Shown here piece by piece: positions 174 to 23,163 of a stretch of DNA of 42,608 nt. The stretch is from Conexibacter sp. Lineage in GTDB: Bacteria; Actinomycetota; Thermoleophilia; Solirubrobacterales; Solirubrobacteraceae. Positions within the stretch are counted from its first letter, which is position 1, and every line of letters begins with the position of its first letter. A program made the position numbers and the translations under genes. The stretch lies in assembly GCA_025964325.1 (NCBI GenBank), contig JAOPZA010000240.1, positions 1 through 42,608 of the forward strand, in the 5' to 3' direction. The notes beneath the pieces are model-generated. The model made no database searches, was not told the origin of the DNA, and worked only from the letters and a program-made list of their open reading frames with translations.

Positions 174-247
174 CGAGCCGGCCCGACCGCGTCGCCGCCG
201 CCGTCCGCGCTGCGCTGACGGCCGAGCGGCCGCAGGACTGGCGCTAG
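170..247 (+). CDS. possible 25-codon small ORF, translationally coupled to the MFS gene
   Basis: A GTG at 170 overlaps the TGA of the MFS gene (GTGA) and opens 25 codons ending at TAG 245-247. The product begins MTSRPDRVAAAVRAALTA and ends ERPQDWR; it looks like one basic amphipathic helix. The last codons and the stop lie inside the first copy of the regulon dyad (237-254). No family is recognised, and such an ORF can arise by chance in GC-rich DNA. Confidence 0.2.
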   Translation: MTSRPDRVAAAVRAALTAERPQDWR

Positions 248-282
248 CGCCAGTCCCCGGCGGCCTTCCGGTCGGCGAGGCT
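237..282 (+). promoter_or_regulatory. regulon promoter P1: 18-bp dyad plus -10, upstream of the 289 LLM gene
   Basis: The dyad ACTGGCGCTAGCGCCAGT (237-254) is a perfect palindrome, extending to 20 bp with the flanking G and C. After 22 bases comes GAGGCT (277-282, pattern nAnnnT), then six bases and ATG at 289. The start codon is 35 nt from the dyad and has no Shine-Dalgarno sequence, so a leaderless mRNA is predicted. This is the best-conserved member of an 11-site family in the window. Confidence 0.75.
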
Positions 283-288
283 GGCAGC

Positions 289-1293
289 ATGGAGTTCGGG
301 TTCATGGTCCTCCCCCGCTCGCTCGAGCAGACGCGGGAGGCGGCGCGGCTCGGCGAGTCGCTGGGCTTCTCCTGGATCGCCGCCGCCGACTCGCCGACGG
401 TCTACGAGGACTCCTACCTGCACCAGCTCGAGATCGCCCGCGCCGCCCCGACGGTCAAGGTCGGTCCGATGGTGAGCCACGTCGTCGCGCGCCATCCGGT
501 GATCGTCGGCAACCTGCTCGCGACGCTCAACAGCTTCACCGGCGGGCGCGCGATCGGCACGCTCGCGACGGGCAACAGCGCGGCCCGCGGCCTGGGCATG
601 AAGCCGGCGACGCTGGCGCAGCTGCGCGAGGCGGTCGAGGCGATCCAGGGCTACTGGCGCGGCGAGGGCGGCGCCTTCAGAGACACCCACATCCCGGTCA
701 CCGGGATGCAGCGCGACGGCTGCCCGCTGCTGATCGCCGCCGACGGACCGAGAGCGGCGGCGCTCGCCGCCACGACCGGCGACGGCCTGCTCTACGGCGG
801 CACGCTCGATCCGGAGGTGCGCCGGCGGCGACTTGCGAGCGTCCACGCGGGCAGCGGCGAGAAGCAGACCTGGATCGCGCCGACGGTCTCGCTCGAGGAG
901 ACGCACGACGCCGTCCGCGACGACCTCGGCGCGATGGTCGTCGCGATGGCGAACCGCGCGATGCGCGGCGACCTCGACGAGCGCAACGTCCCGGCCGCGA
1001 TCCAGGAGGACGTGCTCGAGATGCGCCGCCTCTACGACTACGGCTTCCACGCCGACAACTCGCGGCCGCGCAACACCGGCCTCGTGACCGAGCGGCTCAC
1101 GAATCACCTGATCGACAGCCTCTGCGTGTGGGGCGGCGAGGCGCGCTGGCGCGCGACGCTCGACGCGCTCGCCGACGAGGGCTGGACCGGCGTGATGTTC
1201 ATCCTCGGGCAGGCCGAGCAGCTCGGGGTCGTGCAGGCGATCGGCGAGCGGCTGCAGCGGCTCGGCCACCTCACGCCCCACGTCGCGGCCTGA
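289..1293 (+). CDS. LLM-class flavin/F420-dependent oxidoreductase
   Basis: 334 residues, the usual length for a bacterial luciferase-like (LLM) TIM-barrel enzyme. It starts MEFGFMVLPRS, has the first-strand pattern (GFSWIAAADSPTVYEDSYLH) and the conserved mid-region ...RHPVIVGNLLATLNSFTGGRAIGTLATGN, close to mer/5,10-methylene-H4MPT-reductase-like enzymes of actinomycetes that use F420 or FMN. The substrate is unknown. The ATG at 289 is chosen because it opens the LLM fold and lies exactly where promoter P1 predicts the 5' end of a leaderless transcript. The gene stands alone and converges with the acyl-CoA dehydrogenase gene, 34 bp apart. Confidence 0.85.
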   Translation: MEFGFMVLPRSLEQTREAARLGESLGFSWIAAADSPTVYEDSYLHQLEIARAAPTVKVGPMVSHVVARHPVIVGNLLATLNSFTGGRAIGTLATGNSAARGLGMKPATLAQLREAVEAIQGYWRGEGGAFRDTHIPVTGMQRDGCPLLIAADGPRAAALAATTGDGLLYGGTLDPEVRRRRLASVHAGSGEKQTWIAPTVSLEETHDAVRDDLGAMVVAMANRAMRGDLDERNVPAAIQEDVLEMRRLYDYGFHADNSRPRNTGLVTERLTNHLIDSLCVWGGEARWRATLDALADEGWTGVMFILGQAEQLGVVQAIGERLQRLGHLTPHVAA

Positions 1294-1327
1294 GCGCCGC
1301 TCGCTCGGCGGCGCCCGCCCCCACCCG

Positions 1328-2512
1328 TCAGTAGGACCGCGGCAACCCCAGCGAGTGCTGCGCGACGTAGTTCAGGATCATCTCGCGCGAGACCGGCGCG
1401 ATTCTCAGCAGCCGCACGACGAACCAGAGGTCGGCGAGGCCGTACTCGTCGGCGAGGCCGTTGCCGCCGTGGGTCTGGATCGCGCGGTCGAGGCATCTCA
1501 GGCCGGCGTCGGCGCCGAGCAGCTTCGCCATGTTCGAGGCCTCGCCCGCGGGAAAGCCGCCGTCGTGCAGGACGGCGGCCTTCGCCGTCATCAGCCGCGC
1601 CGCCTCGAGCTCGATCTTCGCCTCCGCGAGCGGATGCGCGACGCCCTGGTGGGCGCCGATCGGCTGATCCCAGACGGAGCGCTCGTTCGCGTAGGCGGCG
1701 GCCTTCTCGAGCGCGTAGCGGCCGACGCCGGTGCAGACGGCGGCCGCCAGGATCCGCTCGGGGTTGAGGCCGTCGAAGCCGATCCGGAGCCCCTCCCCCT
1801 CGCCGCCGATCAGACGGTCGCCGGCGACGCGGACGTCGTCGAAGAAGAGCGTCCACTGCTGCTCGGGCGCCTGCACGGCGTTCGGGATCGGCTGGCGCTC
1901 GAGGCCCGGCGCGTCGGCGTCGACCACGAACAGCGACAGCCGGCCCCGCCCCTTCGCGTCGGCCTCGCCTGTGCGCGCCATCACGAGCAGCGCCTGCGCG
2001 TCCTCGACGCCGGAGATGTAGGTCTTCGTCCCGCGCAGGATCCAGTCCTCGCCGTCCCGGCTCGCGCGCGTCGAGAGGCGGTGCGAGTTCGAGCCCGCGT
2101 CGGGCTCGGTGATCGCGAAGGCGCAGTGCTCGCGGCCGCTGCCGATCCCGCGCAGCCAGCGGTCCTTCTGCTCCGGCGTGCCGTGCAGGTCGAGCACGGT
2201 GCCGGCGATGCCGGGCGAGACGAGCAGCGGCATCAGCGGGCAGCCGACGGCCGCCACCTCCTCGCAGACCATCGCCAGCTCGTGCAGGCCGAGCCCGCCG
2301 CCCTCGTACTCCTCCGGCACGTTGACGCCGAGGTAGCCGTGCTCGGCGAGCGCGTTCCAGAGCGCTCTCGGCGGCTCGCCGGCGCGCACGACGCGCTGGT
2401 AGTAGCCGTGCCCGAAGCTCCCCGCGATGTCGCGCACGGCGGCGCGCAGCGCCTGGTGCTCGTCACGCTCGACGAGCGGCAGGGCAGGGGCGACCGCGGC
2501 GGAATCGGACAT
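1328..2512 (-). CDS. acyl-CoA dehydrogenase (FadE-type)
   Basis: 394 residues with the full acyl-CoA dehydrogenase layout: helical N-domain (AALRAAVRDIAGSFG region), beta-domain FAD/substrate signature (CAFAITEPDAGSNSHR), and C-terminal helical domain (RSVWDQPIGAHQGVAHPLAE; IQTHGGNGLADEYGLADLW). FAD-dependent alpha,beta-desaturation of an acyl-CoA is expected, with electrons passed to ETF. The C-terminus reads RIAPVSREMILNYVAQH, without the YEGT-like segment that carries the catalytic glutamate in medium-chain enzymes, so the base is elsewhere or the substrate unusual. ATG 2512 (MSDSAAVAP) is chosen because it lies 37 nt from the dyad of P2. Its promoter sits in the 3' end of the kinase gene upstream. 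Confidence 0.88.
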   Translation of the reverse strand: MSDSAAVAPALPLVERDEHQALRAAVRDIAGSFGHGYYQRVVRAGEPPRALWNALAEHGYLGVNVPEEYEGGGLGLHELAMVCEEVAAVGCPLMPLLVSPGIAGTVLDLHGTPEQKDRWLRGIGSGREHCAFAITEPDAGSNSHRLSTRASRDGEDWILRGTKTYISGVEDAQALLVMARTGEADAKGRGRLSLFVVDADAPGLERQPIPNAVQAPEQQWTLFFDDVRVAGDRLIGGEGEGLRIGFDGLNPERILAAAVCTGVGRYALEKAAAYANERSVWDQPIGAHQGVAHPLAEAKIELEAARLMTAKAAVLHDGGFPAGEASNMAKLLGADAGLRCLDRAIQTHGGNGLADEYGLADLWFVVRLLRIAPVSREMILNYVAQHSLGLPRSY

Positions 2513-2520
2513 CGACGCGG

Positions 2521-2566
2521 ACGCTAGGCGGGCGGCGGCGAGGCGGCAACTGTCGCCTCCGCCAGT
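2521..2566 (-). promoter_or_regulatory. regulon promoter P2, embedded in the 3' end of the histidine kinase gene
   Basis: The dyad ACTGTCGCCTCCGCCAGT lies at 2549-2566. Read on the minus strand, 22 bases follow, then TAGCGT (2526-2521), then eight bases and the ATG at 2512. The dyad encodes part of the last 14 residues of the kinase, and the -10 overlaps the kinase stop codon. The dyad's last T begins TTGCCG, a fair -35 hexamer. No Shine-Dalgarno precedes the ATG, so a leaderless transcript is predicted. Confidence 0.65.
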
Positions 2567-4566
2567 CGCGCGGCGGTTGCCGCGGACGGCAGCGCCGTCC
2601 GGCGCGCGCCCCCGCCGCCGTTCTCGGCCGCCCCGAGCGGCACGCTCGCCGTCACCTTCGTCCCGCCGCCCGCGGCGCGCGAGACGCGCAGGCTGCCGCC
2701 CTGCTCGCGCACCGCGCGGCGCAGCGAGATCAGTCCGTGGTGCGGCAGCCCGTCGGGCCCCGTCGCTCCGCGCCCGTCGTCGGCGACCGTCAGCACGACG
2801 CGGTCGCGGCGCGAGATCTCCAGCGAGACGCCGACGCGGCAGGGACCGGCGTGCTTGGCGGCGTTCACGAGCGCCTCCCGCGCGACCTTCACGAGCGTGT
2901 CGCTGACCGGCCGGCGCAGGTGCTTGGCGCGGCTGGCGGCGTCGTCGGCGACCGCCAGCCGGACGGCGAGCGAGAACTCCTCCTCGACGCTCGAGACGAC
3001 CGACGCGAGCCGCGTGCCGATGTCGGCCGCGGGCGGGCTCGAGAGCCGGTAGATGACCGTCCGGATCGTCGTGTCGGCACGGATCAGCTGGCCGCGCGCA
3101 CGGGCGATCGCCTCCGCCGCCTCGTCGTCGACGATGTCGCGCTGCAGCAGCGCGTCGAGCGTCAGCTGGGCGGCGAAGAGGATCTGCGCGACGTCGTCGT
3201 GGAGGTCGTCGGCGATCCGCTGGCGCTCCTGCAGCCGCGCCAGCTCGGCGCGCTGCTGCTGGTAGCGCTCGGTCGCGCGCGCGAGGGCGGCGAGGTTCGC
3301 CATCCGCGCGAGCGCGCTGCGCTCGGCCTGCGCGAACGGCTCGCCGCGCAGGCGGTAGGCGGCGAGCGTTCCCATCCGCTGGCGGCCGAGGTAGACGGGC
3401 AGGTAGAAGGCCGCCCAGCCGGGGTCGCCGGCTTTCTGCGGGCCGACGACGTACGCCCGCACGCCGGGGTCGCTGCCGGCCTCCTCCAGCACCAGCCGCT
3501 CGAGCTCCTCGTCGCGCGGCCCGCTGCGGGCCAGCACCGGGGGCGCATCGTCGGGCACGATCGCGAGCAGGCTCGCGTCGGTCGCGACGCACAGCTCGAC
3601 GAGCGCCGGCGTGAGGAAGTCGCTGCTGCTCGAGCCCGACGCGACGGCGACCGCGACGTTCGAGAGGATCCCGTCGAGCTGCTGCTGGCGGCGCAGCCGG
3701 AAGAGCGTCGTCGCGAGCTCGACGATGCTGGCGATCCGCGGCGCCAACGCCCGCGCGCGCTCGACGTCGTCGAGCGTGAAGTCGCTCGGCTTGTTGGCGA
3801 CGTGCAGCACGCCGATCTGCCCGAGCGGCACCGACAGCAGCCGCCGGATCTGGAAGACGTCCACGTACTCCTTGCGGATGCTGGCGTCGTGCTCGGAGGC
3901 GTTGCTGAAGTACGGCTGGCCGGTCGTGAAGATCCGCGCCGAGTTGCTGTGCGGGTCGAAGATGCTGACCTGGTGGGAGGCCGCCACCTCGGGATCGGCG
4001 CCGAACGAGCCGGGGATCATCTGCAGCACGTTGCGCTGGCTGTCGGACACCATGACGGCCGTGATCGCACCGCCGAAGAGCGGGCCGATCACGTCGGTGA
4101 GCGCTCTGCTGAGGTCCTCGAAGCTGTGCGCGGAGAGCACCAGCTGGTCCAGCTCGCCGAGCCGCTCGAGCCGGTCCTCCTCCGTCGCGGGCCGCCGCCG
4201 CAGGCCGAACGCCGTCGCCACCTGCGCGGCGAACGTCGTGATCAGGTGCTCGTTCTCGAACGCGCCGGCGCGCCGCTTCAGCGCGTGGATCGCCCCGAGG
4301 CGCTCGCCGTCGAGCATCACGCCGGCGCTCAGCACGCCCTCGAACTCGCGCTCGAGGAAGCCCGGGCGGCGCTCGGCCAGCCCACGCTCCAGCTCCGCCA
4401 GCTCCTGCGCCGCCAAGCCCTCGGCGGCGACGACGACCGGCGGCCGCGCGCCGGGCTCGAAGACGATCACGATCGCCTCGCTGCCGAGCGAGCGGCGCGC
4501 CGCGACGGTGAGCCCGTCGAAGCCGGCCTGTCCGTCGCCGAGCGGCGGAGCGACGAGCGTGATCAT
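2524..4566 (-). CDS. soluble GAF-domain sensor histidine kinase (HisKA_3/NarX-like)
   Basis: 680 residues with no membrane segment. Two or three GAF-like domains occupy about residues 1-125, 150-290 and 300-425. The dimerisation/phospho-acceptor helix is ERQRIADDLHDDVAQ with His456, typical of the HisKA_3 family that partners NarL-type regulators. The ATPase domain shows an N-box (REALVNAAKHA, about 563-573) and G1 box (DDGRG, about 596-600). A cytoplasmic ligand is therefore probable; its identity is unknown. The ATG at 4566 overlaps the stop of the response regulator by ATGA, so the two are translationally coupled. The 3' end carries promoter P2 of the next gene. Confidence 0.9.
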   Translation of the reverse strand: MITLVAPPLGDGQAGFDGLTVAARRSLGSEAIVIVFEPGARPPVVVAAEGLAAQELAELERGLAERRPGFLEREFEGVLSAGVMLDGERLGAIHALKRRAGAFENEHLITTFAAQVATAFGLRRRPATEEDRLERLGELDQLVLSAHSFEDLSRALTDVIGPLFGGAITAVMVSDSQRNVLQMIPGSFGADPEVAASHQVSIFDPHSNSARIFTTGQPYFSNASEHDASIRKEYVDVFQIRRLLSVPLGQIGVLHVANKPSDFTLDDVERARALAPRIASIVELATTLFRLRRQQQLDGILSNVAVAVASGSSSSDFLTPALVELCVATDASLLAIVPDDAPPVLARSGPRDEELERLVLEEAGSDPGVRAYVVGPQKAGDPGWAAFYLPVYLGRQRMGTLAAYRLRGEPFAQAERSALARMANLAALARATERYQQQRAELARLQERQRIADDLHDDVAQILFAAQLTLDALLQRDIVDDEAAEAIARARGQLIRADTTIRTVIYRLSSPPAADIGTRLASVVSSVEEEFSLAVRLAVADDAASRAKHLRRPVSDTLVKVAREALVNAAKHAGPCRVGVSLEISRRDRVVLTVADDGRGATGPDGLPHHGLISLRRAVREQGGSLRVSRAAGGGTKVTASVPLGAAENGGGGARRTALPSAATAARLAEATVAASPPPA

Positions 4567-5231
4567 GCGTCCTGGCGCGTCACCCCGGCCTCACCGGCCG
4601 GCGCGATGAAGCCCGTGCGGATCGCCTTCGCGATCAGCTCCGTCTTGGTGCGGGCGGCGAACTTCGCCTTCAGCTTCTGGACGTGGAAGCGGACGGTCGA
4701 CTCCGAGATGAAGAGGCGCGTCCCGATCTCCTGGTTCGTGAAGCCCTGCGCTGCCAGCTCGAGCACGCGCTCCTGCTGCGGCGTCGGCCGCGCGCCGCTC
4801 ATGCGGTCCTCCACGAGCGCGTGCAGCTGCTTGACGATCTGCGGTCCGGCGGCGACGCCGGGCGCGGCCGCGCCCTCCATCACGCGCTCGATCGCCGCCA
4901 TCAGCTCCGGCAGGCCGGCGGCCTTCGTCACGTAGGCCGCGGCGCCCGCGTCGAGCGCCCCGCGGACGGTCTCCTCGCTGAGGTAGGTCGTGAGGATGAT
5001 GACCGCCGTGCTGGGGAAGTCGCGACGCAGCTCGCGCGTCAGGTCCTCGCCGCGCATGTCGGGCAGGCGCAGGTCGACGAGCGCGATGTCCGGCAGCGTC
5101 TGGCGGACGCGGCGCAGGGCCTCTCTTCCCGTGGAGGCTTCGGCGACGACGTCGATCCGGGGATCGCTCGACAGCGTGGCGCGAACACCTTCACGGACGA
5201 TCTCGTGATCGTCCACGATCATGATCCGCAT
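4563..5231 (-). CDS. NarL/LuxR-family two-component response regulator
   Basis: 222 residues. The receiver domain (1-120) has the acidic pair D7-D8, phospho-acceptor D53 (ALVDLRLPDM), the conserved Thr in ILTTY and Lys in YVTKA. The GerE/LuxR helix-turn-helix (about 150-210) reads LAAQGFTNQEIGTRLFISESTVRFHV in two pieces of its core. It is expected to dimerise on DNA when phosphorylated by the kinase encoded next. Start ATG 5231 has a strong Shine-Dalgarno (AGGAGGAG) a few bases upstream. It is the only regulator encoded inside the 23-kb region carrying the 18-bp dyads, and proteins of this family bind dyads of this size, so it is the leading candidate to control that regulon (inference). Confidence 0.92.
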   Translation of the reverse strand: MRIMIVDDHEIVREGVRATLSSDPRIDVVAEASTGREALRRVRQTLPDIALVDLRLPDMRGEDLTRELRRDFPSTAVIILTTYLSEETVRGALDAGAAAYVTKAAGLPELMAAIERVMEGAAAPGVAAGPQIVKQLHALVEDRMSGARPTPQQERVLELAAQGFTNQEIGTRLFISESTVRFHVQKLKAKFAARTKTELIAKAIRTGFIAPAGEAGVTRQDA

Positions 5232-5303
5232 CGGTCTCTCCTCCTGCCGCTGCCCGGCGAGCCCGGGGGGAGGCTCCTACCGGCCGGTCGACTCTCCCGA
5301 ACG

Positions 5304-5333
5304 ACAATACAACCTGGCGGACAGCTGGGGCAA
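5304..5333 (-). promoter_or_regulatory. possible promoter of the two-component operon
   Basis: On the minus strand TTGCCC (5333-5328) is followed by 18 bases and TATTGT (5309-5304), a fair -35/-10 pair about 75 nt before the Shine-Dalgarno-led ATG at 5231. There is no good copy of the regulon dyad; a poor match at 5291-5308 overlaps the -10. The call rests on hexamers alone. Confidence 0.35.
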
Positions 5334-5369
5334 TGCGCGAAAGCTCGCGCAGGGCGCTCGCCTTCGCGG

Positions 5370-5398
5370 GCGGGTATCGCCCCGAGGGCGCTACCCGC
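5370..5398. terminator. hairpin downstream of the hyuB-like gene
   Basis: GCGGGTATCGCCC and GGGCGCTACCCGC form a 13-bp stem (one mismatch) around CGA. It lies 54 nt past the stop of the hyuB-like gene (minus strand), a fit for a transcription terminator, with no clear U-tract. It shares the GGTATCGCCC core with the hairpin at 12670-12697. The rest of the 5232-5451 gap holds only the regulator's leader and promoter. Confidence 0.5.
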
Positions 5399-5451
5399 GA
5401 TCCGCGAGGGCGCGCGACGCCGCGCTCGCGCAGTGCGCGCGGCGCTGCTGG

Positions 5452-7638
5452 CTACGAGGCGACCGCCTCGCGCAGCGCCGACGCGGCCGGCAGCGTCTCG
5501 AGGCCCTCGGTCGCGACGTCGACGCCGAGGCTCGCGGCGCAGCCCGGGCAGAAGTACTCGCGCACCATCACGCGCGGGGCCTCCTTGCGGTCGCGCACGA
5601 TCATCTCGAGCTCGTCGTAGCGCTCGGCGATCGGGCGCTCGGAGCCGACCGCGCCGTCGCGCCAGTTGCCGCCGACGTCGGCCAGCCGCTCCTCGCAGGA
5701 GGCGCACGACCAGGCCTCGTCGTCGCGCGCCAGCGAGACCCCGATGCTCGGCGGAGCGGCCTGCTGCTTCGCCGGCTCGCCGCCGATCCGCTCGCGGCGG
5801 ATCTCGGCCCGCCGCCCCGCGGTCGCGTCCGCGTCGACCGCGTTCTCGCCGTCCAGCACGACGCCGTAGATCGCGCGGGCGTGGCCGGCCGTCACGTAGC
5901 CGGCGACGACGTCGGCGGCGACCCTCGCCGGCTCGCGCAGGAGCGGGTCGCCGAGGCCGGCGCCGCCGCCGGCGGTCGCGACGAAGACGTCGCCGCGCTC
6001 GAGCGCGATGTGGGTCAGCTTCGAGCGGACGACCTCGGTGCGGCCGTCGAGCCGCTCGCGCGTCGGCATCGTGCCCTCGGCGATCAGCTTCGACACGTTC
6101 GAGTCGCGGACCGGGAAGAAGGTGCCGGACGAGCCCGGGTAGCCGCCGCCGACGCCGTGCGGCGGGACCTGCGCGCAGGCGTTGAAGCACGGGCCCGCCA
6201 TCACGTCGCCGTAGTGGATCGCATAGGCCTGGTCGAGCGACTGGCCGCCGCGCATCTGGCCCGGGCCGCCCGAGTTGGCGACCAGCCGGCGCCACAGGAA
6301 CAGCACCGGGTCGGCGCCCTCGTGGTTCTCGATGTCGGGGATGCCGCCGCCCGTCGTGCAGGTCAGGCCGTAGGCGTCCTGGCCGTCGTTGATCGTCTGG
6401 CCGCCGCCGCCCGAGCCGATCGCGTTGTCGGGGTAGAAGATCACCGAGACGCCGCCGTGCTGGTTGGTGCCGAACAGCGCGTTGCCGGGGAAGCCGTCCT
6501 GATGCTGGCCGGCGATCCGGGCGCGGATCACGGGGTCCTCGCTCAGCGCCATCGCCTGGCAAAGGACGTCCTTGGAGAGCTTGCAGGCGCGCATCCCCAC
6601 CTCCGAGTGCGCATTGGAGACCGGCGCCGGCGGGACCGAGTTGACGATCGTCCCCTCCTCGCCGAGGTCGACCCTGATCGGCCGCCAGAGGCCGCCGTTG
6701 ACCGGCAGGTCGCCGTAGACGAGGACGGTCATCAGGCCGGTCATCGCCTGGCCGAACATCGGGCCGCGGGTCGAGTTGACGAACGCGTCGATCTGCGGGA
6801 CGCCCGAGTAGCTGTAGCGCAGGTCGGTGCCGTCGACCTCCAGCCGGCAGCGCAGCTCGAGCAGCCGGTCCGGGCCCTCGTGGCCGTCGAACTCGTTCCA
6901 GTCGACGGCCTCGTAGACGCCGTCCGGGATTCTCGCGATCCGCTCGCGCAGCACCTGCTCGCTCAGGTCCTTGTTGATCTCGCAGTACTTGCGGTGGTTC
7001 TCGAGCCCGAACTCGTCGATGATCTGGTTGAGCTTGCCGGTCGCGGTGTTGTTGGCGGCCACCATCGAGCGGATGTCGTTCAGGACCGCGCCGGGCGCCC
7101 GCACGTTGGCGGCGATGTACGCCTCCCACTGCGGGTCGATCGCGCCCTCGCGGATGATCTGGATCGGCGGGAAGCGCATCCCCTCCTGCCAGACGTCATG
7201 GGCGCCGGGCGCGTAGCCGGAGATGCCGACGCCGCCGACGTCGAGGACGTGCATGTTGGCGAAGCTCCAGCCGAGGTGCTCGCCGTCGTAGAACGTCGGC
7301 ATGATGATCGAGACGTCGCCCTGGTGCATCGCCCCGCCGGTGTGGGGGTCGTTGACGATCCAGCCGTCGCCCGGCTGCAGGTCGTAGTTCGACTCGGCGA
7401 CCAGGTCGATGATCGCTCTCGTCCCGATCAGCGACGAGCCGACGTGGAAGAGCACGTAGGACGAGAACCCGAGGTGCTCGCAGTTCGTGTCCATCAGGCA
7501 GGTCGAGAAGTCCTTCGACTCCGTCACGATCGGCGATCCGGAGGTCCGCACGAGCGTGATCGCCATCTCGTCGGTCAGGTTCTGCAGCGCCTTGCGATGG
7601 ACCTCGGCCGCAATGACGTCGTAGTCGGCAGTGCTCAT
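5452..7638 (-). CDS. hydantoinase B / acetone-carboxylase alpha-like subunit with fused gamma-like zinc domain
   Basis: 728 residues. The first ~590 match the HyuB family (DPHTGGAMHQGDVSIIMP; YAPGAHDVWQEG; late glycine-rich SGGPGQMRGGQ). In ketone carboxylases this subunit binds the substrate and carboxyphosphate-derived CO2. A C-terminal extension of about 100 residues has two Cys pairs, CASC (645, 648) and CPGC (697, 700), resembling the separate gamma subunit of acetone carboxylase (AcxC-like zinc domain). The fusion points to ketone carboxylation rather than hydantoin hydrolysis, though 5-oxoprolinase/hydantoinase activity cannot be excluded. ATG 7638 has AGGAGCG upstream and follows the hyuA-like stop by 10 bp; the two form one operon from promoter P3. 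Confidence 0.82.
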   Translation of the reverse strand: MSTADYDVIAAEVHRKALQNLTDEMAITLVRTSGSPIVTESKDFSTCLMDTNCEHLGFSSYVLFHVGSSLIGTRAIIDLVAESNYDLQPGDGWIVNDPHTGGAMHQGDVSIIMPTFYDGEHLGWSFANMHVLDVGGVGISGYAPGAHDVWQEGMRFPPIQIIREGAIDPQWEAYIAANVRAPGAVLNDIRSMVAANNTATGKLNQIIDEFGLENHRKYCEINKDLSEQVLRERIARIPDGVYEAVDWNEFDGHEGPDRLLELRCRLEVDGTDLRYSYSGVPQIDAFVNSTRGPMFGQAMTGLMTVLVYGDLPVNGGLWRPIRVDLGEEGTIVNSVPPAPVSNAHSEVGMRACKLSKDVLCQAMALSEDPVIRARIAGQHQDGFPGNALFGTNQHGGVSVIFYPDNAIGSGGGGQTINDGQDAYGLTCTTGGGIPDIENHEGADPVLFLWRRLVANSGGPGQMRGGQSLDQAYAIHYGDVMAGPCFNACAQVPPHGVGGGYPGSSGTFFPVRDSNVSKLIAEGTMPTRERLDGRTEVVRSKLTHIALERGDVFVATAGGGAGLGDPLLREPARVAADVVAGYVTAGHARAIYGVVLDGENAVDADATAGRRAEIRRERIGGEPAKQQAAPPSIGVSLARDDEAWSCASCEERLADVGGNWRDGAVGSERPIAERYDELEMIVRDRKEAPRVMVREYFCPGCAASLGVDVATEGLETLPAASALREAVAS

Positions 7639-7648
7639 CGGTCGCTCC

Positions 7649-9748
7649 TCAACGGGTCAGGACGTAGTTCATGTACTCGTCGCGCTCCGCCGTGGTTCCC
7701 GGAGGCACGTAGATCGTGGTGTCGACGGCGTCGATGATCGCCGGGCCCTCGACGCGCGTGCCGGCGGTGAAGCGCGCGTCGTCGATCACCGGCACCGACT
7801 CGCGGCGCCGCTCGCCCGGCAGGAAGACCTCGCGCATCTCGCGCGTGAGCTCGCCCGTCGCGCCGTTGCGCGGCGGGCCGGCGATGCTCGGCCGCTCCTG
7901 CCGCCCGGTCACCGTGACGCTGTAGTTGATGAGCGACGCCGGCACGCCCTTCCAGGCGGTTCCCTCGCCGTAGGTCTGCTCGTAGTGGGAGAGGAACTCG
8001 TCGAAGATCTTCGGCGCATCGTCCTCGGTCAGCGTCCGCGCCGGCATCGGCAGCGTCAGCTCGTAGGCCTGCCCCTGGAAGCGGATGTCGGCGCTGCGGG
8101 CGACGTCGATCTGCTCGCGCGGGAAGCCCTCGGACTCCATCTGCGCGATCGCCTCGGCGACCATTCTCTCGGCGATCGCGTTGACGCGCTCGACGCCGTC
8201 GGGCTTGCTGAGGTCCCAGCCGACGCCCTGGTCCGAGCGCATCACGTAGTCGGATGAGAGCAGTCCGAGCGCGCAGAAGACCGAGCTGTTCTGCGGGATC
8301 ACGATCGTCGAGATGTTGAGGCGGTCGGCGATCTGCGAGGCGAACAGCGGCAGCGTGCCGCCGTAGGCGAGGAAGAGGAACTCGCGCGGATCGTGGCCCT
8401 TGCCGACGCTGACCTCGCGCACCGCGTTCGCCATGTTGACGACGACGAGGTCGTGGACGGCGGCCGCCGACTCCTCCGTGCTCCAGCCGTAGCGCGCGCC
8501 GAAGACGCGGTCGAGCGCCTCGCGGGAGAGCTCGGGTTGGAGTTGGACGCGACCGCCGAGGTAGTTGTCGGGGTCGATGAAGCCGAGCGTCACCATCGCG
8601 TCGGTGACGGTCGGCTGCTCGCCGCCGCGTCCGAGCGCGGCGGGACCCGGGGTCGAGCCCGCGCTGTGGGGGCCGACCTGCGGCACGCCGCGCTCGCTGA
8701 CCCAGCCGATCGAGCCGCCGCCGGCGCCGACCGAGACGACGTCGACGAGGTTGACGCCCGTCATGAAGGGACCGAGCTCGAGGTTCTTCTCGATGTGGAT
8801 CTCGTTGTCGACGATGATCCCGGTGTCGAAGCTCGTGCCGCCCATGTCGCCGAGCAGCACGCGTCTCTTGCCCATCCGTCTGGCCAGCTCGTTCGCGCCG
8901 ATCGCGCCGCCGGCCGGGCCGGAGCCGAGCAGGCCGAGCGGGTATTGGCGCGCCTTCTCGAGGCTGATGCCGCCGCCGAGTCCCTGGAAGAAGGCGAGCC
9001 CGCCGCCGAGTCCCGACGATCGCAGCTTCTCGTCGAGCGAGGTGAGGTAGACCTCGGCGCGGTCCTGCACGAACGAGTTGAGGATCGCCGTCGTCCAGCG
9101 ACGGGTCTCGCCTTCGACCGGGAAGACGCGGTGCGAGGGGGTCACGAAGAGGTCGGGATAGAGCTCCTTGATCGCCGCCTCGGCGGCGAGCTCGTGCTCG
9201 CCGTTGGCGTGACTCCAGAGGAAGCAGACGGCGACCGCGTCGACGCCGATCTCCTCGACCAGGTGGCGCACGGCGGTCTTGACCTGCTCGGTGTCGAGCG
9301 GGACCAGCACGCTGCCCGACCAGTCGACGCGCTCGTCGATGTCGATGATCGCGCGACGGTCCACGAGGTCGGGCACGTTCAGCTGCAGGTGATCGTCGAG
9401 CTCGGTCGTGCGCGGGCCGCCGGCGAGCCGGAAGGCGTCGCCGAAGCCGCTCGTGACGAGCACGCCGACGCGTGAGCCGCGCAGCTGGGTGATCGCGTTC
9501 GTGACGACCGTCGTGCCGTTGATGAAGAGCTGCGTCTTCTCGAGCAGCTCCTCCATCCCGATCTCGTAGCTCCCGGCGGCGACCGACACCGCCTCGAGCA
9601 CGCCGCGGCTGAAGTCGTCGTAGGTGGTCAGGGCCTTGCCCCGCTCCACCCGTCCGTTGTAGATCACGGACACGTCCGTGTGCGTTCCGCCGACGTCGAC
9701 GCCGATGAAGGCGTCGCGGCCGCTGGGCTCTGCCTGAGTCTGGCTCAT
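7649..9748 (-). CDS. hydantoinase A / acetone-carboxylase beta-like ATP-binding subunit
   Basis: 699 residues of the HyuA/oxoprolinase A family. It has the actin-like nucleotide-binding signature GVDVGGTHTDVSVIYNG near residue 15-30 and the second phosphate motif LLGDMGGTSFDTGII near 295. In acetone and acetophenone carboxylases this subunit uses ATP to activate bicarbonate and substrate. Partner: the HyuB-like protein encoded 10 bp downstream. ATG 9748 is preceded by AGGAGA, and a predicted leader of about 25 nt separates it from promoter P3. The neighbouring acyl-CoA ligase upstream could activate the beta-keto acid product (inference). Confidence 0.85.
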   Translation of the reverse strand: MSQTQAEPSGRDAFIGVDVGGTHTDVSVIYNGRVERGKALTTYDDFSRGVLEAVSVAAGSYEIGMEELLEKTQLFINGTTVVTNAITQLRGSRVGVLVTSGFGDAFRLAGGPRTTELDDHLQLNVPDLVDRRAIIDIDERVDWSGSVLVPLDTEQVKTAVRHLVEEIGVDAVAVCFLWSHANGEHELAAEAAIKELYPDLFVTPSHRVFPVEGETRRWTTAILNSFVQDRAEVYLTSLDEKLRSSGLGGGLAFFQGLGGGISLEKARQYPLGLLGSGPAGGAIGANELARRMGKRRVLLGDMGGTSFDTGIIVDNEIHIEKNLELGPFMTGVNLVDVVSVGAGGGSIGWVSERGVPQVGPHSAGSTPGPAALGRGGEQPTVTDAMVTLGFIDPDNYLGGRVQLQPELSREALDRVFGARYGWSTEESAAAVHDLVVVNMANAVREVSVGKGHDPREFLFLAYGGTLPLFASQIADRLNISTIVIPQNSSVFCALGLLSSDYVMRSDQGVGWDLSKPDGVERVNAIAERMVAEAIAQMESEGFPREQIDVARSADIRFQGQAYELTLPMPARTLTEDDAPKIFDEFLSHYEQTYGEGTAWKGVPASLINYSVTVTGRQERPSIAGPPRNGATGELTREMREVFLPGERRRESVPVIDDARFTAGTRVEGPAIIDAVDTTIYVPPGTTAERDEYMNYVLTR

Positions 9749-9783: not shown

Positions 9784-9829
9784 ACTCTGCTCGCGGGCCG
9801 GCTGACGGGCAACTGTCCGATCCGACAGT
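9784..9829 (-). promoter_or_regulatory. regulon promoter P3 of the hyuA-hyuB operon
   Basis: The dyad ACTGTCCGATCCGACAGT (9812-9829) is fully symmetric. On the minus strand 22 bases later is CAGAGT (9789-9784). The dyad's last T begins TTGCCC, a -35-like hexamer. The ATG at 9748 is 64 nt from the dyad and has a Shine-Dalgarno, so this mRNA should have a short leader. Confidence 0.7.
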
Positions 9830-11495: not shown

Positions 11496-11541
11496 AGCAT
11501 CGCACCGGCCCGCCGCGCGAAGCACTAGCGCTAGCGCCAGT
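11496..11541 (-). promoter_or_regulatory. regulon promoter P4 of the acyl-CoA synthetase gene
   Basis: The dyad ACTAGCGCTAGCGCCAGT (11524-11541) is followed on the minus strand by 22 bases and GATGCT (11501-11496). The start codon at 11460 is 64 nt from the dyad and has a GGAGG ribosome binding site. The dyad lies 8 bp past the stop of the kinase gene. Confidence 0.7.
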
Positions 11542-12600: not shown

Positions 12601-12646
12601 ACGGTACCGCGGTCCTCGAGGGAGGGACATTGGCGAAAGCGCTAGG
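12601..12646 (-). promoter_or_regulatory. regulon promoter P5 of the APH-kinase gene
   Basis: The dyad ATTGGCGAAAGCGCTAGG (12629-12646) is followed on the minus strand by 22 bases and TACCGT (12606-12601), then seven bases and the ATG at 12593. There is no Shine-Dalgarno sequence, so a leaderless transcript is predicted. Confidence 0.65.
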
Positions 12647-12749: not shown

Positions 12750-12795
12750 ACTGGCGCTTCGGGGAGGCGACTCGGTGCGGGGTGTCGGCTTTCAT
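12750..12795 (+). promoter_or_regulatory. regulon promoter P6 (half-conserved dyad) of the 12804 LLM gene
   Basis: The left half ACTGGCG with spacer CTTC is intact at 12750-12760, while the right half is degenerate (GGGGAGG, 12761-12767). The spacing is kept: 22 bases, then TTTCAT (12790-12795), then eight bases and the ATG at 12804, 37 nt from the site. Weaker or altered control is expected. Confidence 0.4.
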
Positions 12796-13947: not shown

Positions 13948-14388
13948 CTACGACGGAGCCGAGCGAGAGCGCACAGCGGCCGACCGCATCGAAGGCGTCC
14001 GCGCCAGCGCCGCTACCTCGCGGTCGATCAGCTCGCGCAGCACGCGGTGGACGCCGGCGCGGCGCGGATCCTCGCGCGGCAGCGCGGCGAGGAGGTCCAC
14101 CAGCGCGTCGCCGACCTCGACGCCGGTGCGCGCCGCCTCGACCCGCGCGCGTGCGTCGAGGACCAGCTCGCGGCGGTCGTCGTCGAGCACGGCGTCGAGC
14201 TCGGCGCGCAGCCAGGCCAGCAGCTCGGCCGCGGCCGCGTGCTCGGCGGCGAGCAGACGCGTCACGCTGTAGGCGGAGAGGATCTGGCTGCGCTGGTAGT
14301 CCTCGAGCGCTCCGTCCGCGGCCGCCGCCATCCGGAGCACGCGGCCGACGCCGACCAGCAGCTCCTCGGATGTGAGCGCGTTGAACAC
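13948..14388 (-). CDS. 146-residue helical protein of unknown function, possible kinase accessory subunit
   Basis: Not recognised with certainty. The sequence (EELLVGVGRVLRM; RSQILSAYSVTRLLAAE; LLAWLRAELDAVL; ALVDLLAALP) predicts an all-helical, acidic, soluble protein with an Arg/Ser-rich tail and no signal peptide. Its pattern of an ELL..V helix followed by an R-x-Q-x-LSAYSVTR helix loosely recalls the small partner proteins encoded beside APH-type kinases (LvaB in levulinate catabolism). Since the kinase is encoded 1.8 kb away under the same dyad-type promoter, an accessory role is a reasonable guess only. GTG 14388 lies 38 nt from the dyad of P7, matching the leaderless pattern. Confidence 0.6.
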   Translation of the reverse strand: MFNALTSEELLVGVGRVLRMAAAADGALEDYQRSQILSAYSVTRLLAAEHAAAAELLAWLRAELDAVLDDDRRELVLDARARVEAARTGVEVGDALVDLLAALPREDPRRAGVHRVLRELIDREVAALARTPSMRSAAVRSRSAPS

Positions 14389-17645: not shown

Positions 17646-17719
17646 ACCCTATCCGCGCCGTTTCGGCCGGGCGACTGGCGGTTGCGCTAGGACCGGTTTC
17701 GCCCGCTGCCGCCTAGCGT
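17646..17719. promoter_or_regulatory. regulon promoter P8, bidirectional
   Basis: One dyad, ACTGGCGGTTGCGCTAGG (17674-17691), serves two directions. On the + strand 22 bases then TAGCGT (17714-17719), with ATG 17728 at 37 nt and no Shine-Dalgarno. On the minus strand 22 bases then TAGGGT (17651-17646), with GTG 17603 at 71 nt and an AGGAGG site. Both -10 hexamers are at exactly the same spacing. Confidence 0.7.
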
Positions 17720-19440: not shown

Positions 19441-19828
19441 CGCCGCCGACGACCAGGCAGGCGCCGGCGGTGCGCGCGAGCGTGAGCGGCTCCGACAGGA
19501 ACGCGGCCGCCAGCAGCAGCGTGCAGACCGGGTAGGCGGCGGAGACCGCCGTCACCTTGCCCGCGTCGCCGGCACCGAGTGCGACGTAGAGCGAGATCAG
19601 GCCGCCGATCGCCACGACGCCGGAGAGCGCCGCCCAGCCGGTGCCCGAGACGATCCGCAGCTCGGTTCTGCCGAGCGCGAGCAGCACGCCGGCGGCGAGC
19701 ACGTAGCCGACGCCGGTCCAGAGGATCAGGTCGTACCAGCTGAGCGTCCGCAGGGCGAGCTTGCCCGTCACGCTCAGCGCGCCCACGAGGACCACATACG
19801 CGAACGTGGGGATCAGCCAGGCGATCAT
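19415..19828 (-). CDS. single-domain EamA/DMT-family membrane protein
   Basis: 137 residues with four to five predicted transmembrane helices (MIAWLIPTFAYVVLVGAL; LILWTGVGYVLAAGVLLAL; WAALSGVVAIGGLISLYVAL; AYPVCTLLLAAAFLSEPLTL; CLVVGGVIVLTV). This is one EamA repeat, half the size of a ten-helix DMT transporter, so it should dimerise like SMR proteins. Uptake or export of a pathway compound is likely because it shares promoter P9 with the MaoC pair. ATG 19828 lies 37 nt from the dyad. Confidence 0.8.
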   Translation of the reverse strand: MIAWLIPTFAYVVLVGALSVTGKLALRTLSWYDLILWTGVGYVLAAGVLLALGRTELRIVSGTGWAALSGVVAIGGLISLYVALGAGDAGKVTAVSAAYPVCTLLLAAAFLSEPLTLARTAGACLVVGGVIVLTVAS

Positions 19829-19836
19829 CGCGGTCG

Positions 19837-19910
19837 ACTCTCTCCGACTCGGTGGTCACGGTCGACTGGCAGTAGCGCCAGTTGGAGCGCGGTGCGGCGT
19901 CGCGCAGAGT
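19837..19910. promoter_or_regulatory. regulon promoter P9, symmetric bidirectional
   Basis: The dyad ACTGGCAGTAGCGCCAGT (19865-19882) sits midway between divergent genes. On the + strand 22 bases then CAGAGT (19905-19910) and ATG 19918 at 36 nt; on the minus strand 22 bases then GAGAGT (19842-19837) and ATG 19828 at 37 nt. Both transcripts would be leaderless and one bound dimer could activate both. Confidence 0.75.
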
Positions 19911-19917
19911 AGCGGAC

Positions 19918-20361
19918 ATGACCAGACCGAGTGAGGACGCGCCCGCCCTGTCGAACGTCGCCTACGACGAGCTCGTCGTGGACGAGCGCTTCGGCCCCTT
20001 CGAGGAGCCGGTGAGCGCCGCGCTGGCCGGCCGCCTCGCGGGCCCGATCGGCGCCGCCGCCGACGTGCGGCTGGCGCCGCCGGCGGTCTTCCCCGTGCTC
20101 TTCCTGCGCGCGCTGCGGCGCGCGATGGGCGGGATCCCCTCCGGCAGCATCCTGGCGAAGCAGGAGCTCGAGTTCCACGCGCAGCTGCCCGTCGACCGCG
20201 ACGTCGCGATCACGACCTGGGTCGGCGCGAAGGAGGTCCGTCGCGAGCGGCCGTTCGTGACGATCGAGTTCGACGTCCGCGACGCGCGCAGCGACGCGCG
20301 GATCGTGACGGGACGCAAGATCATCGTGTGGCCGACCGGCCCCGGCGAGGAGACCAGCTGA
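19918..20361 (+). CDS. MaoC-like N-terminal (FAS1-type) dehydratase domain protein
   Basis: 147 residues. The hot-dog-fold pattern ...APPAVFPVLFLRALRRAMGGIP... and LAKQELEFHAQLPVDRDVAITTWV is that of the small MaoC_dehydrat_N-type proteins that form heterodimers with a catalytic MaoC partner, as in the hydratases of mycobacterial steroid and fatty-acid metabolism. It lacks the D-x(4)-H active site, which its partner has. ATG 19918 (MTRPSEDAP) is chosen for the 36-nt dyad spacing over an upstream in-frame start. Its stop overlaps the next ATG by one base. Confidence 0.78.
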   Translation: MTRPSEDAPALSNVAYDELVVDERFGPFEEPVSAALAGRLAGPIGAAADVRLAPPAVFPVLFLRALRRAMGGIPSGSILAKQELEFHAQLPVDRDVAITTWVGAKEVRRERPFVTIEFDVRDARSDARIVTGRKIIVWPTGPGEETS

Positions 20362-20738: not shown

Positions 20739-20743
20739 GGCGC

Positions 20744-21313
20744 CTACGTCGCCGGCGGCGAGGCGTCGAGCTCGACGCCGAGCCCGTTCAGCACGCCGCC
20801 GAGCAGCGCGTAGGTGCCCGCCAGCACGACGAGCTCGATCCGCTCCGCCTCCGCGCGACCGGCCAGCCCCGACCACGTCGCGTCGGAGATCCGGTGGGTG
20901 GCGATCAGCTCGTCGGCGAGGTCGAGCAGCGCGCGGTCGGCCGGCGTCCACGGGTGAGGCAGCGCGGGATCGACGGCAGCTTCGATCTCCTCCGCCGTCA
21001 GCCCCGCGGCGGCTCCGATCACGCGGTGGTGCGCGACCTCGTAGTCGCTCTCGACGCGCGCCGCGGTGCGCAGGACCACGAGCTCGCGGTCGCGCGGCGC
21101 GATCGCGGCGTGGACGCTGAAGTAGCCGCCGAGCGCGCTCACGCGGCGCGCGAGGCGAGGCGCGTGGGCGAGCGTGGCGAAGAGGTTGAGCGGGCCCCCG
21201 TCGGCGCGCGGGAGCGTCGTCGCCAGCAGCGCGCGCTGCTCGGCGTCGGGCGCGCGGACCGGCTCGATCCGGGGCGCGATCGGACCGATCCCGTCAGCTC
21301 GCGAGCGTGCCAT
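20744..21313 (-). CDS. carboxymuconolactone decarboxylase/AhpD-like protein
   Basis: 189 residues, all-helical CMD fold: RDRELVVLRTAARVESDYEVAHHRVIGAAAGLTAEEIEA carries the E-x(2)-HH feature of this family (shown here in full only in part: EVAHHR). It lacks the CxxC of peroxidase-type AhpD, so it is nearer to the gamma-carboxymuconolactone decarboxylase-like group of unknown activity. ATG 21313 overlaps the 3' end of the CoA-transferase beta gene by 20 bp, so it is the last gene of that operon. Confidence 0.78.
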   Translation of the reverse strand: MARSRADGIGPIAPRIEPVRAPDAEQRALLATTLPRADGGPLNLFATLAHAPRLARRVSALGGYFSVHAAIAPRDRELVVLRTAARVESDYEVAHHRVIGAAAGLTAEEIEAAVDPALPHPWTPADRALLDLADELIATHRISDATWSGLAGRAEAERIELVVLAGTYALLGGVLNGLGVELDASPPAT

Positions 21314-22070
21314 GGACGTCGACGCGCTCGCGCAGCGTCCGCAGCTCGTCCGCCGTCGGCGCGACGGTACGCGGCACGTCGTCGGGGATCGCGAGCGGGA
21401 AGCCCGTCGCCTCGCGCACGGCGTCGGGCTCGACGCCGTCGTGCAGCGAGCGCACGCGCATGTCCCCCGCGGCGTCGAAGTCGAAGACGCCGAGCGGCGA
21501 GAGCACGAGCCGGATCCCGCCGCCGGGGAGCTTCAGCCGCCGCCGCTCCTGCGCGTCGCCGAGCGCGGTGATCAGCGAGACGCGCTCGACGAACGTGCGG
21601 GCGTCGTGGCGCGGCATCACGACGTAGTAGCCGCGGCAGTGGCTGCTCATCGTCGCGAGCGCGAGGCCGCCCGGCCCGCGCATCTTCCAGCCGCCGTCGC
21701 CGTCCGGGATGCCGAACAGGTTGATGTTGCCGCGCTGGTCGAGCTGCAGGCCGCCGACGAAGAAGACGTCGGGACGGCTCATGTCGTCGAAGACGCGGCT
21801 CTGGTGCATCAACGTCTCGGCCGCGAGCGTGCGCGGGTCGAAGAGGAACGGATGGACGGCCGGCGCCTCGCCGCCGCCGAGGCTCTGCACCCCGAGGCCG
21901 ATCATGATCCGCGCGTCGGGGTGGGTCGTCATGTTCGCGAGCATCGCCGCGGCGCGCGCCATCGGCATGTTGGCGCCGACCATGATCGTGCGGTCGTCGT
22001 CGCGCAGGTCGCGCGCGAGCAGGATCGCGAACAGCTCGTCGACCGACGCTGGGCGGACGGCGGCGCTCAC
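21294..22070 (-). CDS. CoA-transferase beta subunit (IpdB-like)
   Basis: 258 residues from GTG 22070, which overlaps the alpha stop by GTGA. Blocks VGANMPMARAAAMLANMTTHPD, GGLQLDQRGNINL and GPGGLALATMSSH are those of family I CoA-transferase beta chains, with closest resemblance by pattern to IpdB/glutaconate-type subunits. In actinomycetes IpdAB hydrolyses a ring of a steroid CoA ester; related pairs transfer CoA between acids. The choice between these cannot be made from the sequence. Confidence 0.8.
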   Translation of the reverse strand: MSAAVRPASVDELFAILLARDLRDDDRTIMVGANMPMARAAAMLANMTTHPDARIMIGLGVQSLGGGEAPAVHPFLFDPRTLAAETLMHQSRVFDDMSRPDVFFVGGLQLDQRGNINLFGIPDGDGGWKMRGPGGLALATMSSHCRGYYVVMPRHDARTFVERVSLITALGDAQERRRLKLPGGGIRLVLSPLGVFDFDAAGDMRVRSLHDGVEPDAVREATGFPLAIPDDVPRTVAPTADELRTLRERVDVHGTLAS

Positions 22071-22954
22071 ACCAGCAGCGAGGTCAGCCGGCGGATGCCG
22101 ACCTCCTCGAGGTAGGCGTCGTTGTCCTCGGCGTCGAGCACGTGGCGGCGCAGGTACGCGTCGACCGCCTCCTCGCCCTCCTTCGCGGCGCGCACGAAGT
22201 CGCGCAGGTGCTGCTCGTCGGCCGTCATCCAGCCGTTCGAGTACGGGTGCGTGCCGAACGGCGCGCGGACGACGGCGGTGTCGCGCCAGAACAGGGTCCG
22301 CTCCGGGTAGCGGCGGATCTCCTCGGTCGCGACGATCCGGTCGACCTGCAGCACGACCTTCTCGGCGGCCGCGCCGAGCAGCCCGTCCATGTTGCCGGTG
22401 CCGACCGGCTGCGCGTTGCCGAACTCGTCGGCGATCTCCGAGTAGACCAACGCGACGTCGAGCTCGAGCGCGGGGATCGCGAGCAGCGGCTCCCCGCGGA
22501 CCGGGTCGTCGAACGCGACGAGCCCCGGGTTGAGCTGCGGGAAGGAGGTGCCGACGCCGCCGCGCCAGGGCAGGAACGGCAGCTTCTGCGCCGCCGCCCG
22601 CAGGCCCAGCAGCACGTGTGCCTCGTCGAGCTCGACGACCGCGACGCTGCCGCGCTCGACCGCGCGCCGGAAGACCGGCCCGACGGCGGCGACGACCTCG
22701 ACGCCGACGTACGCGCCGACGACCGTGCTCACGCAGCCGGCGGCGATCAGCAGGTCGACCTCGATCCCGCCGACGGGGGCGACGACCGTGAGATCGCGCA
22801 CGCCGCGACGTGCGATGCCGCGCACGAGCGCCATCGGGTGGCCGGCGGTGACGGCGCCGCCGATGCCGATCACGGCGCCGTCGGTGACGACCTCGAGCGC
22901 GTCGTCGAGCGCCGCGACGACGGGGCGGCGTCCGCCGGAGCGAGCGCCGCTCAC
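22067..22954 (-). CDS. CoA-transferase alpha subunit (IpdA-like)
   Basis: 295 residues. The N-terminal TDGAVIGIGGAVTAGHPMALVR and central KLPFLPWRGGVGTSFP and ALVYSEIADEFGNAQ match family I CoA-transferase alpha chains, with the IpdA-like lengths and RLPFLP-type motif. GTG 22954 is chosen because it overlaps the stop of a 16-codon leader ORF by GTGA and because an in-frame stop lies 57 nt upstream with no better start between. Expected to work with the beta subunit as a complex. Confidence 0.78.
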   Translation of the reverse strand: MSGARSGGRRPVVAALDDALEVVTDGAVIGIGGAVTAGHPMALVRGIARRGVRDLTVVAPVGGIEVDLLIAAGCVSTVVGAYVGVEVVAAVGPVFRRAVERGSVAVVELDEAHVLLGLRAAAQKLPFLPWRGGVGTSFPQLNPGLVAFDDPVRGEPLLAIPALELDVALVYSEIADEFGNAQPVGTGNMDGLLGAAAEKVVLQVDRIVATEEIRRYPERTLFWRDTAVVRAPFGTHPYSNGWMTADEQHLRDFVRAAKEGEEAVDAYLRRHVLDAEDNDAYLEEVGIRRLTSLLV

Positions 22955-23001
22955 CCGCGGCCGTGCCCGGTGCGGCGCGGCGATCCGTGGTCCTCGGCCA
23001 T
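22951..23001 (-). CDS. 16-codon leader ORF coupled to the CoA-transferase alpha gene
   Basis: ATG at 23001 opens MAEDHGSPRRTGHGRG and TGA, and the stop overlaps the GTG of the alpha subunit (GTGA). The ATG lies 36 nt from the dyad of P10, the same place as the leaderless start codons of the other regulon genes. It therefore looks like the true 5' end of the message, with the enzyme translated by coupling. No attenuator-like run of one amino acid is present. A peptide function is not implied. Confidence 0.5.
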   Translation of the reverse strand: MAEDHGSPRRTGHGRG

Positions 23002-23008
23002 GGCCGGT

Positions 23009-23054
23009 AGTTCACCCGAGCGAGCCCCTCTCGCCCACTAGCGCTTCCGCCAAT
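23009..23054 (-). promoter_or_regulatory. regulon promoter P10 of the CoA-transferase operon
   Basis: The dyad ACTAGCGCTTCCGCCAAT (23037-23054) is followed on the minus strand by 22 bases and TGAACT (23014-23009), a weak -10, then the leader ATG at 23001 at 36 nt. The site is one of two copies of a 31-bp repeat. Confidence 0.55.
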
Positions 23055-23062
23055 ACGCCTCG
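23032..23062 (+). repeat. 31-bp direct repeat, copy 1 (contains the P10 dyad)
   Basis: Matches 23133-23163 with one mismatch (A at 23052, G at 23153). It includes the dyad ACTAGCGCTTCCGCC and the trailing ATACGCCTCG. The copies are 101 bp apart in the same orientation. Together with the P10/P11 promoters they fill the intergenic space 22955-23245. Confidence 0.7.
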
Positions 23063-23132
23063 GGGCGGCCGCGCGACCGCCCGGGACCGCGAGCGCCCCA
23101 CTACCTGTCGGGGCAGTCGCGGCGACCGCCGC

Positions 23133-23163
23133 CGCCCACTAGCGCTTCCGCCGATACGCCTCG
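23133..23163 (+). repeat. 31-bp direct repeat, copy 2 (contains the P11 dyad)
   Basis: Second copy of the repeat at 23032-23062. It lies upstream of the + strand acyl-CoA ligase, whereas copy 1 serves the minus-strand operon. A local duplication of one operator is the simplest origin. Confidence 0.7.

What the first reader, a model, noticed from the sequence alone, without database searches (positions are those of the whole stretch)
237..23155. Eleven copies of an 18-bp dyad form one promoter regulon
Consensus ACTRKCG-N4-CGCYAGT recurs at 237, 2549, 9812, 11524, 12629, 12750 (half), 14426, 17674, 19865, 23037 and 23138. Each lies just upstream of a gene, serves 13 promoters, and none was found in the remaining 19 kb. 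The set covers ligases, dehydrogenases, LLM enzymes, a carboxylase, a kinase, a transporter and a CoA-transferase, so the genes probably answer one signal. I know of no described regulon with this box.
Basis: partly seen in the sequence, partly recalled or inferred. Interest (0 to 1): 0.92.

Follow-up and report, generated by a model that had tools for sequence, protein, structure and literature searches.

The report
Two-component catabolic regulon with new box
Ten copies of an 18-base DNA signal sit at one fixed distance in front of degradation genes in a soil actinobacterium, and comparison of genomes points to a sensor/response-regulator pair encoded in the same stretch as the switch that reads them.

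Summary
Ten full 18-bp dyads lie at the stated places; 12750 is only a half-site. A whole-genome profile scan finds strong sites on only three contigs: the window, C93 and C200. The other two were not used to build the profile and also carry ligase, hydantoinase and ABC-transporter genes.

The boxes are promoter elements. A -10-like hexamer (NANNNT) starts exactly 22 nt past the box at 9 of 12 window promoters (0 of 5000 shuffles), 7 of 8 others in this genome and 22 of 31 in relatives. This puts the box at about -52 to -35, where an activator sits. Many of these genes start 34-37 nt past the box, so their mRNAs are probably leaderless.

The likely regulator is the NarL/DevR-type response regulator at 4563-5231 with its GAF-domain kinase at 2524-4566. 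Boxes occur at 13 of 16 loci whose regulator carries the same recognition helix (TVRFH.QK), including Agrococcus, against 0 of 36 GC-rich loci with other response regulators. Stray box matches in genomes without it lack the phased -10 (0 of 8).

This is a new regulon of a known kind. The inducer and pathway are unknown, and binding is untested.

The parts
4563..5231 (-). Response regulator (receiver + LuxR/GerE HTH), NarL/DevR type; proposed reader of the box
   Evidence: Pfam Response_reg 2.5e-26 and GerE 6.9e-14; best PDB relative DevR 3c3w, 1.6e-35; recognition helix TVRFHVQKLK shared by box-bearing genomes
2524..4566 (-). Cytosolic-type GAF histidine kinase (HisKA_3/HATPase_c), overlaps the RR stop by 4 nt, cognate sensor
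   Evidence: Pfam GAF_2 1.2e-18, HisKA_3 2e-9, HATPase_c 2.6e-9
237..254 (+). Box 1, promoter of LLM oxidoreductase 289-1293; -10 GAGGCT, leaderless spacing 34 nt
2549..2566 (-). Box 2, inside 3' end of kinase gene, promoter of acyl-CoA dehydrogenase 1328-2512; -10 TAGCGT, 36 nt
9812..9829 (-). Box 3, promoter of hydantoinase-A/acetone-carboxylase-like subunit 7649-9748; -10 CAGAGT, 63 nt with Shine-Dalgarno
11524..11541 (-). Box 4, promoter of acyl-CoA ligase 9853-11460; -10 GATGCT, 63 nt with Shine-Dalgarno
12629..12646 (-). Box 5, promoter of APH-type kinase 11550-12593; -10 TACCGT, 35 nt
12750..12767 (+). Half-site only, upstream of LLM oxidoreductase 12804-13820; 36 nt; -10 partial (TTTCAT)
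   Evidence: 9.7 bits
14426..14443 (-). Box 6, promoter of 146-aa unknown protein 13948-14388; -10 partial (TTTGAT), 37 nt
17674..17691 (.). Box 7, shared divergent: acyl-CoA dehydrogenase 16338-17603 (-) and acyl-CoA ligase 17728-19440 (+); phased -10 on both sides (TAGGGT, TAGCGT)
19865..19882 (.). Box 8, shared divergent: EamA transporter 19415-19828 (-) and small ORF 19918-20361 preceding a MaoC hydratase (+); phased -10 on both sides
23037..23054 (-). Box 9, promoter of CoA-transferase subunit genes 22067-22954 / 21294-22070; -10 partial
23138..23155 (+). Box 10, promoter of acyl-CoA ligase 23246-24985; no phased -10, leader with Shine-Dalgarno
5452..9748 (-). Hydantoinase B (with acetone-carboxylase-gamma-like tail, 5452-7638) and hydantoinase A (7649-9748)
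   Evidence: Pfam

Best explanation
The box is the operator of a NarL/DevR-type response regulator (window 4563-5231). Its partner is the GAF-domain histidine kinase encoded just downstream (2524-4566). The kinase is thought to sense a compound linked to the pathway and phosphorylate the regulator, which dimerises on gACTRKCG-SWWS-CGMYAGT. The dyad ends where the -35 element would begin (about -52 to -35, centre near -43.5), so the bound dimer recruits RNA polymerase to a fixed -10 hexamer that begins 22 nt after the box. One symmetric box can therefore drive two divergent promoters. In the 34-37 nt class the predicted transcription start coincides with the start codon, giving leaderless mRNA. 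The regulon is a CoA-linked catabolic island: ligases, acyl-CoA dehydrogenases, hydratases, flavin oxidoreductases, an ATP-dependent hydantoinase/carboxylase, a CoA-transferase and transporters. Shown by computation: the boxes, the -10 phasing, the genome-wide restriction and the co-occurrence with the regulator. Inferred: binding, activation rather than repression, leaderless mRNA, and a chemical inducer.
For: Excess over shuffles. Genome scan confined to C26, C93 and C200. NANNNT exactly 22 nt past the box: 9/12 in the window (0/5000 shuffles), 7/8 elsewhere in the genome, 22/31 in relatives, with no other offset above 3. The RR is the only transcription-factor gene I identified among the box-bearing genes. 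In 61 relatives the RR orthologue is in 5 genomes, all with boxes; at least two box places occur in 4/5 RR+ against 1/56 RR- genomes, p 4.7e-5. 13/16 loci whose RR has the same recognition helix carry boxes >=16 bits, against 0/36 GC-rich loci with other RRs, p 9e-10; this includes Agrococcus (another class, other genes) and RRs only 50-53% identical. Chance box matches in RR-less genomes have no phased -10 (0/8) and 4/8 lie inside genes, while the best boxes of RR+ genomes (loci L039, L040, L041, L044, and L052 pos 505) have it.
Against: No binding or expression data. RR and target genes are linked, so co-occurrence partly reflects shared inheritance; the Agrococcus locus and the 50-53% RRs lessen this. 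Two paralogous RR loci with the helix (L156, L160) have no box nearby and L157 has only weak ones. The RR/kinase pair has no box of its own. Four of 13 window promoters lack a full phased -10.
Confidence: 0.84

Rival explanations
1. The box is a repressor operator for one of the two TetR regulators in the right part of the window (32207-32908 or 37988-38578), released by a pathway intermediate.
For: TetR operators are often palindromes of this length (general knowledge). Both TetR genes accompany the cluster in G001, G003 and G005, and a TetR2 relative lies near the RR in Patulibacter.
Against: No box lies near either TetR gene in the window. G028 has strong boxes but no TetR1 and only about 35% TetR2 paralogues, though it is 75% complete. 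The box lies upstream of the -10 in the activator position with a non-consensus -35, not over the -10 or the start site.
Confidence: 0.06
2. The box is bound by an unlinked regulator elsewhere in the genome, and the RR/kinase pair merely travels with the cluster.
For: Binding is untested, and no box precedes the RR gene itself.
Against: The unlinked gene would have to follow the RR into Agrococcus and into unrelated gene neighbourhoods in G189 and G384, and its box would have to track the RR recognition helix.
Confidence: 0.09
3. The repeats are chance or a dispersed repeat element with no regulatory role.
For: At 3 mismatches the pattern is at chance level.
Against: Exact spacing to the -10 hexamer, confinement to three contigs and conservation at orthologous promoters despite diverged flanks.
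Confidence: 0.01

Closest known systems
DevR/DosR (M. tuberculosis) and OsdR (Streptomyces), GAF-kinase/NarL-type response regulators
   Same: Response regulator of the same family (best PDB match 3c3w); partner kinase with GAF and HisKA_3 domains; palindromic box; many targets near the regulator's own genes.
   Different: Recognition helix TVRFHVQKLK instead of TVKNYVSRLL. The OsdR box is the 16-mer AGGGCCGATCGGCCCT (PMC5069765), not ACTRKCG-SWWS-CGMYAGT. Targets are CoA-linked catabolic enzymes rather than dormancy and stress genes.
MadR/MadS and MctR/MctS NCBIfam two-component families
   Same: Nearest named equivalogs for the RR and kinase.
   Different: Scores far below the curated cut-offs (RR 159 against 300; kinase 76 against 500). 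MadRS of Enterococcus controls antimicrobial-peptide resistance (PMC10679384).
Response-regulator-controlled catabolic regulons such as StyR and TodT (from memory)
   Same: A NarL/FixJ-type regulator switching on degradation genes from a dyad near -40.
   Different: No sequence or box relationship tested; those are proteobacterial aromatic pathways. Here one box drives many scattered and divergent promoters.

Membership tests
NarL/FixJ (LuxR-type) response regulators | Receiver domain with phospho-acceptor Asp plus C-terminal GerE/LuxR HTH | tested here: met
   Both Pfam domains above cut-off; D7, D8, D53, K103 invariant in 11 orthologues
NarL/FixJ (LuxR-type) response regulators | Adjacent HisKA_3-type sensor kinase | tested here: met
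   2524-4566 overlaps the RR gene by 4 nt; GAF, HisKA_3, HATPase_c
NarL/FixJ (LuxR-type) response regulators | Phosphorylation-dependent binding to a dyad | not testable with these tools
   Only co-occurrence of helix and box was tested
DevR/DosR/OsdR dormancy regulators | DevR-type recognition helix and GGGRCY...RGYCCC-type box | tested here: not met
   Different helix; different box (against PMC5069765)
MadR / MctR equivalogs | Score above NCBIfam curated cut-off | tested here: not met
   159.4 against 300 and 113.5 against 300
Activator-dependent (class II) promoters | Operator abutting or overlapping -35 at fixed distance from -10, weak -35 | tested here: met
   22-nt phasing, box about -52 to -35, no -35 consensus in most copies
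Activator-dependent (class II) promoters | Expression falls without the activator | not testable with these tools
   No expression data

The most novel reading that the evidence does not exclude
The response regulator, kinase and box form a portable switching module of Thermoleophilia that has moved across classes (Agrococcus) and been wired to different CoA-linked degradation genes, with box, -10 and often the start codon held at fixed distances so that a 60-nt cassette makes any gene inducible and leaderless.
Probability: 0.35. Interest if true: 0.62.

Novelty: new member of a known kind. Interest (0 to 1): 0.52.

Why it matters
Solirubrobacterales are common soil bacteria and, to my knowledge and in the open-access library searched, have no described catabolic regulon. 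This gives a box, a candidate regulator and a rule (22 nt to -10) that predict which of their many acyl-CoA genes work together. The recognition-helix/box pairing can be tested directly, and it would help assign genes in relatives such as Patulibacter medicamentivorans.

Tried and rejected
Pfam and NCBIfam gave no family for the 146-aa protein (Pfam only was run); a levulinate-type LvaB reading was considered from its place beside the APH kinase and left unproven. Assigning the pathway (alicyclic/terpenoid ketone, lactone or 4-hydroxyacid) was tried through PDB relatives: the CoA-transferase is nearest IpdA, the kinase resembles 9o56, 3dxp and the ACAD11 kinase domain, and the LLM enzyme is nearest F420-dependent reductases. 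These do not fix a substrate. Literature searches found no description of this box. More distant Actinobacterial response regulators (36-38%) lack the helix and the box.

Full report
Observation. The ten full boxes are present at the given coordinates, and the 12750 copy is a half-site. No other place in the window reaches 10 bits on a symmetric weight matrix, while the ten score 20-27. The sites were partly chosen to fit the consensus, so the independent tests below matter more.

Genome-wide test. A sequence-only profile from the ten window sites was run on the whole 4.34 Mb genome. All places with E up to 1 lie on the window contig C26 or on two other contigs, C93 and C200. C93 has boxes at 829, 4260 and 14997; C200 at 4443, 6607, 7895, 13878 and 13909. 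These contigs encode acyl-CoA ligases, two further hydantoinase A/B sets with an acetone-carboxylase-gamma-like protein, sugar-type ABC transporters, alcohol dehydrogenases, a MaoC hydratase, a SnoaL protein and an MFS transporter. In the sister genome G001 the C200 genes follow directly on the left end of the window's cluster (L058), and in RYN_247 the C93 transporter genes follow the hydantoinase genes (L065). The three contigs are therefore probably one island; that is an inference from synteny.

Promoter anatomy. When promoters are aligned on the box, an A at position 24 and a T at position 28 after the box stand out from a GC-rich background: 16/20 and 18/20 in this genome. The hexamer NANNNT at offset 22 occurs at 9/12 window promoters with full boxes, 7/8 other promoters of the genome and 22/31 in relatives. 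No other offset is used by more than 3, and the best offset in 5000 shuffles of the window set never passed 4. The hexamer often reads TAGCGT or CAGAGT. If it is the -10 element, the box covers about -52 to -35. In 14 of 59 promoters the last T of the box starts a TTG at an ideal 17-nt spacing, but most have no -35 consensus. Start codons fall 34-37 nt after the box in one class, which puts the start site on the start codon (leaderless), and 60-70 nt or more in another, usually with a Shine-Dalgarno sequence. Boxes 17674 and 19865 have phased -10 elements on both sides, so one dyad serves two divergent promoters.

Who binds it. Among the box-bearing genes of the three contigs the only transcription-factor gene identified is the response regulator 4563-5231, with its GAF/HisKA_3 kinase 2524-4566. 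Four tests tie it to the box. (1) Among 61 relatives, the RR orthologue is in five genomes, and all five have boxes. At least two box places are found in four of these five and in one of the other 56 (p 4.7e-5). (2) A scan of 84,980 species gave ten loci with RR identity of 57% or more, and all carry boxes. They include Patulibacter medicamentivorans, where the boxes are weaker, and Agrococcus baldri, which belongs to another class and has other neighbouring genes. (3) A profile search found further RRs in the class. G384 and G189, at 50-53% identity and with different gene neighbourhoods, have boxes of 18.7-23.2 bits. (4) All these RRs share the recognition helix TVRFH[VIML]QK, unlike DevR and Chloroflexota RRs. 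Boxes of 16 bits or more occur at 13/16 such loci, against 5/73 loci with other RRs and 0/36 of the GC-rich ones.

Negative control. Eight of the RR-less relatives gave a box match. The eight best matches, one each, show no phased -10, and four lie inside genes. The best boxes of the RR-bearing relatives (L039, L040, L041, L044, and L052 at position 505) have it. Sequence match alone is thus not enough, and the phased -10 separates real sites from chance.

Rivals. The two TetR genes lie in the box-free part of the window. TetR1 is missing from G028 and TetR2 has only distant paralogues there, although G028 has strong boxes (that genome is 75% complete). The operator position also argues for an activator. 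An unlinked regulator cannot be excluded without binding data.

What the genes do. The set (ligases, acyl-CoA dehydrogenases, enoyl-CoA and MaoC hydratases, LLM flavin enzymes, hydantoinase/carboxylase-like pair, APH kinase resembling the ACAD11 kinase domain, IpdA-like CoA-transferase) fits CoA-linked breakdown of a ring or branched compound. The substrate is not identified.

Novelty. The components are of known kinds: a NarL-type response regulator, a GAF kinase and an activator-type promoter. The nearest characterised system by regulator sequence is DevR/OsdR, with a different helix, box (PMC5069765) and gene set. I found no description of this box in the open-access library, which does not cover subscription journals.

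Noticed in passing
window 25929-32180: Acyclic-terpene-utilisation-type cluster (AtuA-like, biotin carboxylase, biotin carrier, carboxyltransferase, enoyl-CoA hydratase) with a TetR gene at 32207 and no box; in G189 (L162) the same genes lie next to an RR with the box-type helix and a 22.5-bit box at 7490.
   Followed up: partly
window 33069-38578: MmgE/PrpD, DUF7065, E1 alpha/beta of a 2-oxoacid dehydrogenase and a second TetR; relatives of the E1 genes and this TetR sit beside the RR in Patulibacter (L066), hinting that the box-free half belongs to the same pathway under other control.
   Followed up: partly
window 13948-14388: 146-aa protein with no Pfam match, conserved beside the APH-type kinase and an LLM enzyme in several relatives (L061, L064, L065); possible partner of a 4-hydroxyacyl-CoA kinase.
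   Followed up: partly
window 5232-5451: Intergenic stretch upstream of the RR gene contains inverted repeats and no box, so the regulator is apparently not under its own box.
   Followed up: no
L062 (CAMCVN010000006.1): Record titled Bifidobacterium breve MAG carries the Solirubrobacterales-type cluster and groups with this family; the title is probably wrong.
   Followed up: no
L156, L157 (G313): A genome with three RRs bearing the same helix; two paralogues have no or weak boxes nearby, so the subfamily may include members with other targets.
   Followed up: partly
L067 13823-15811 and 16346-18319: Agrococcus locus has two kinase genes and one RR, with boxes just before both kinases or their neighbours.
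   Followed up: no
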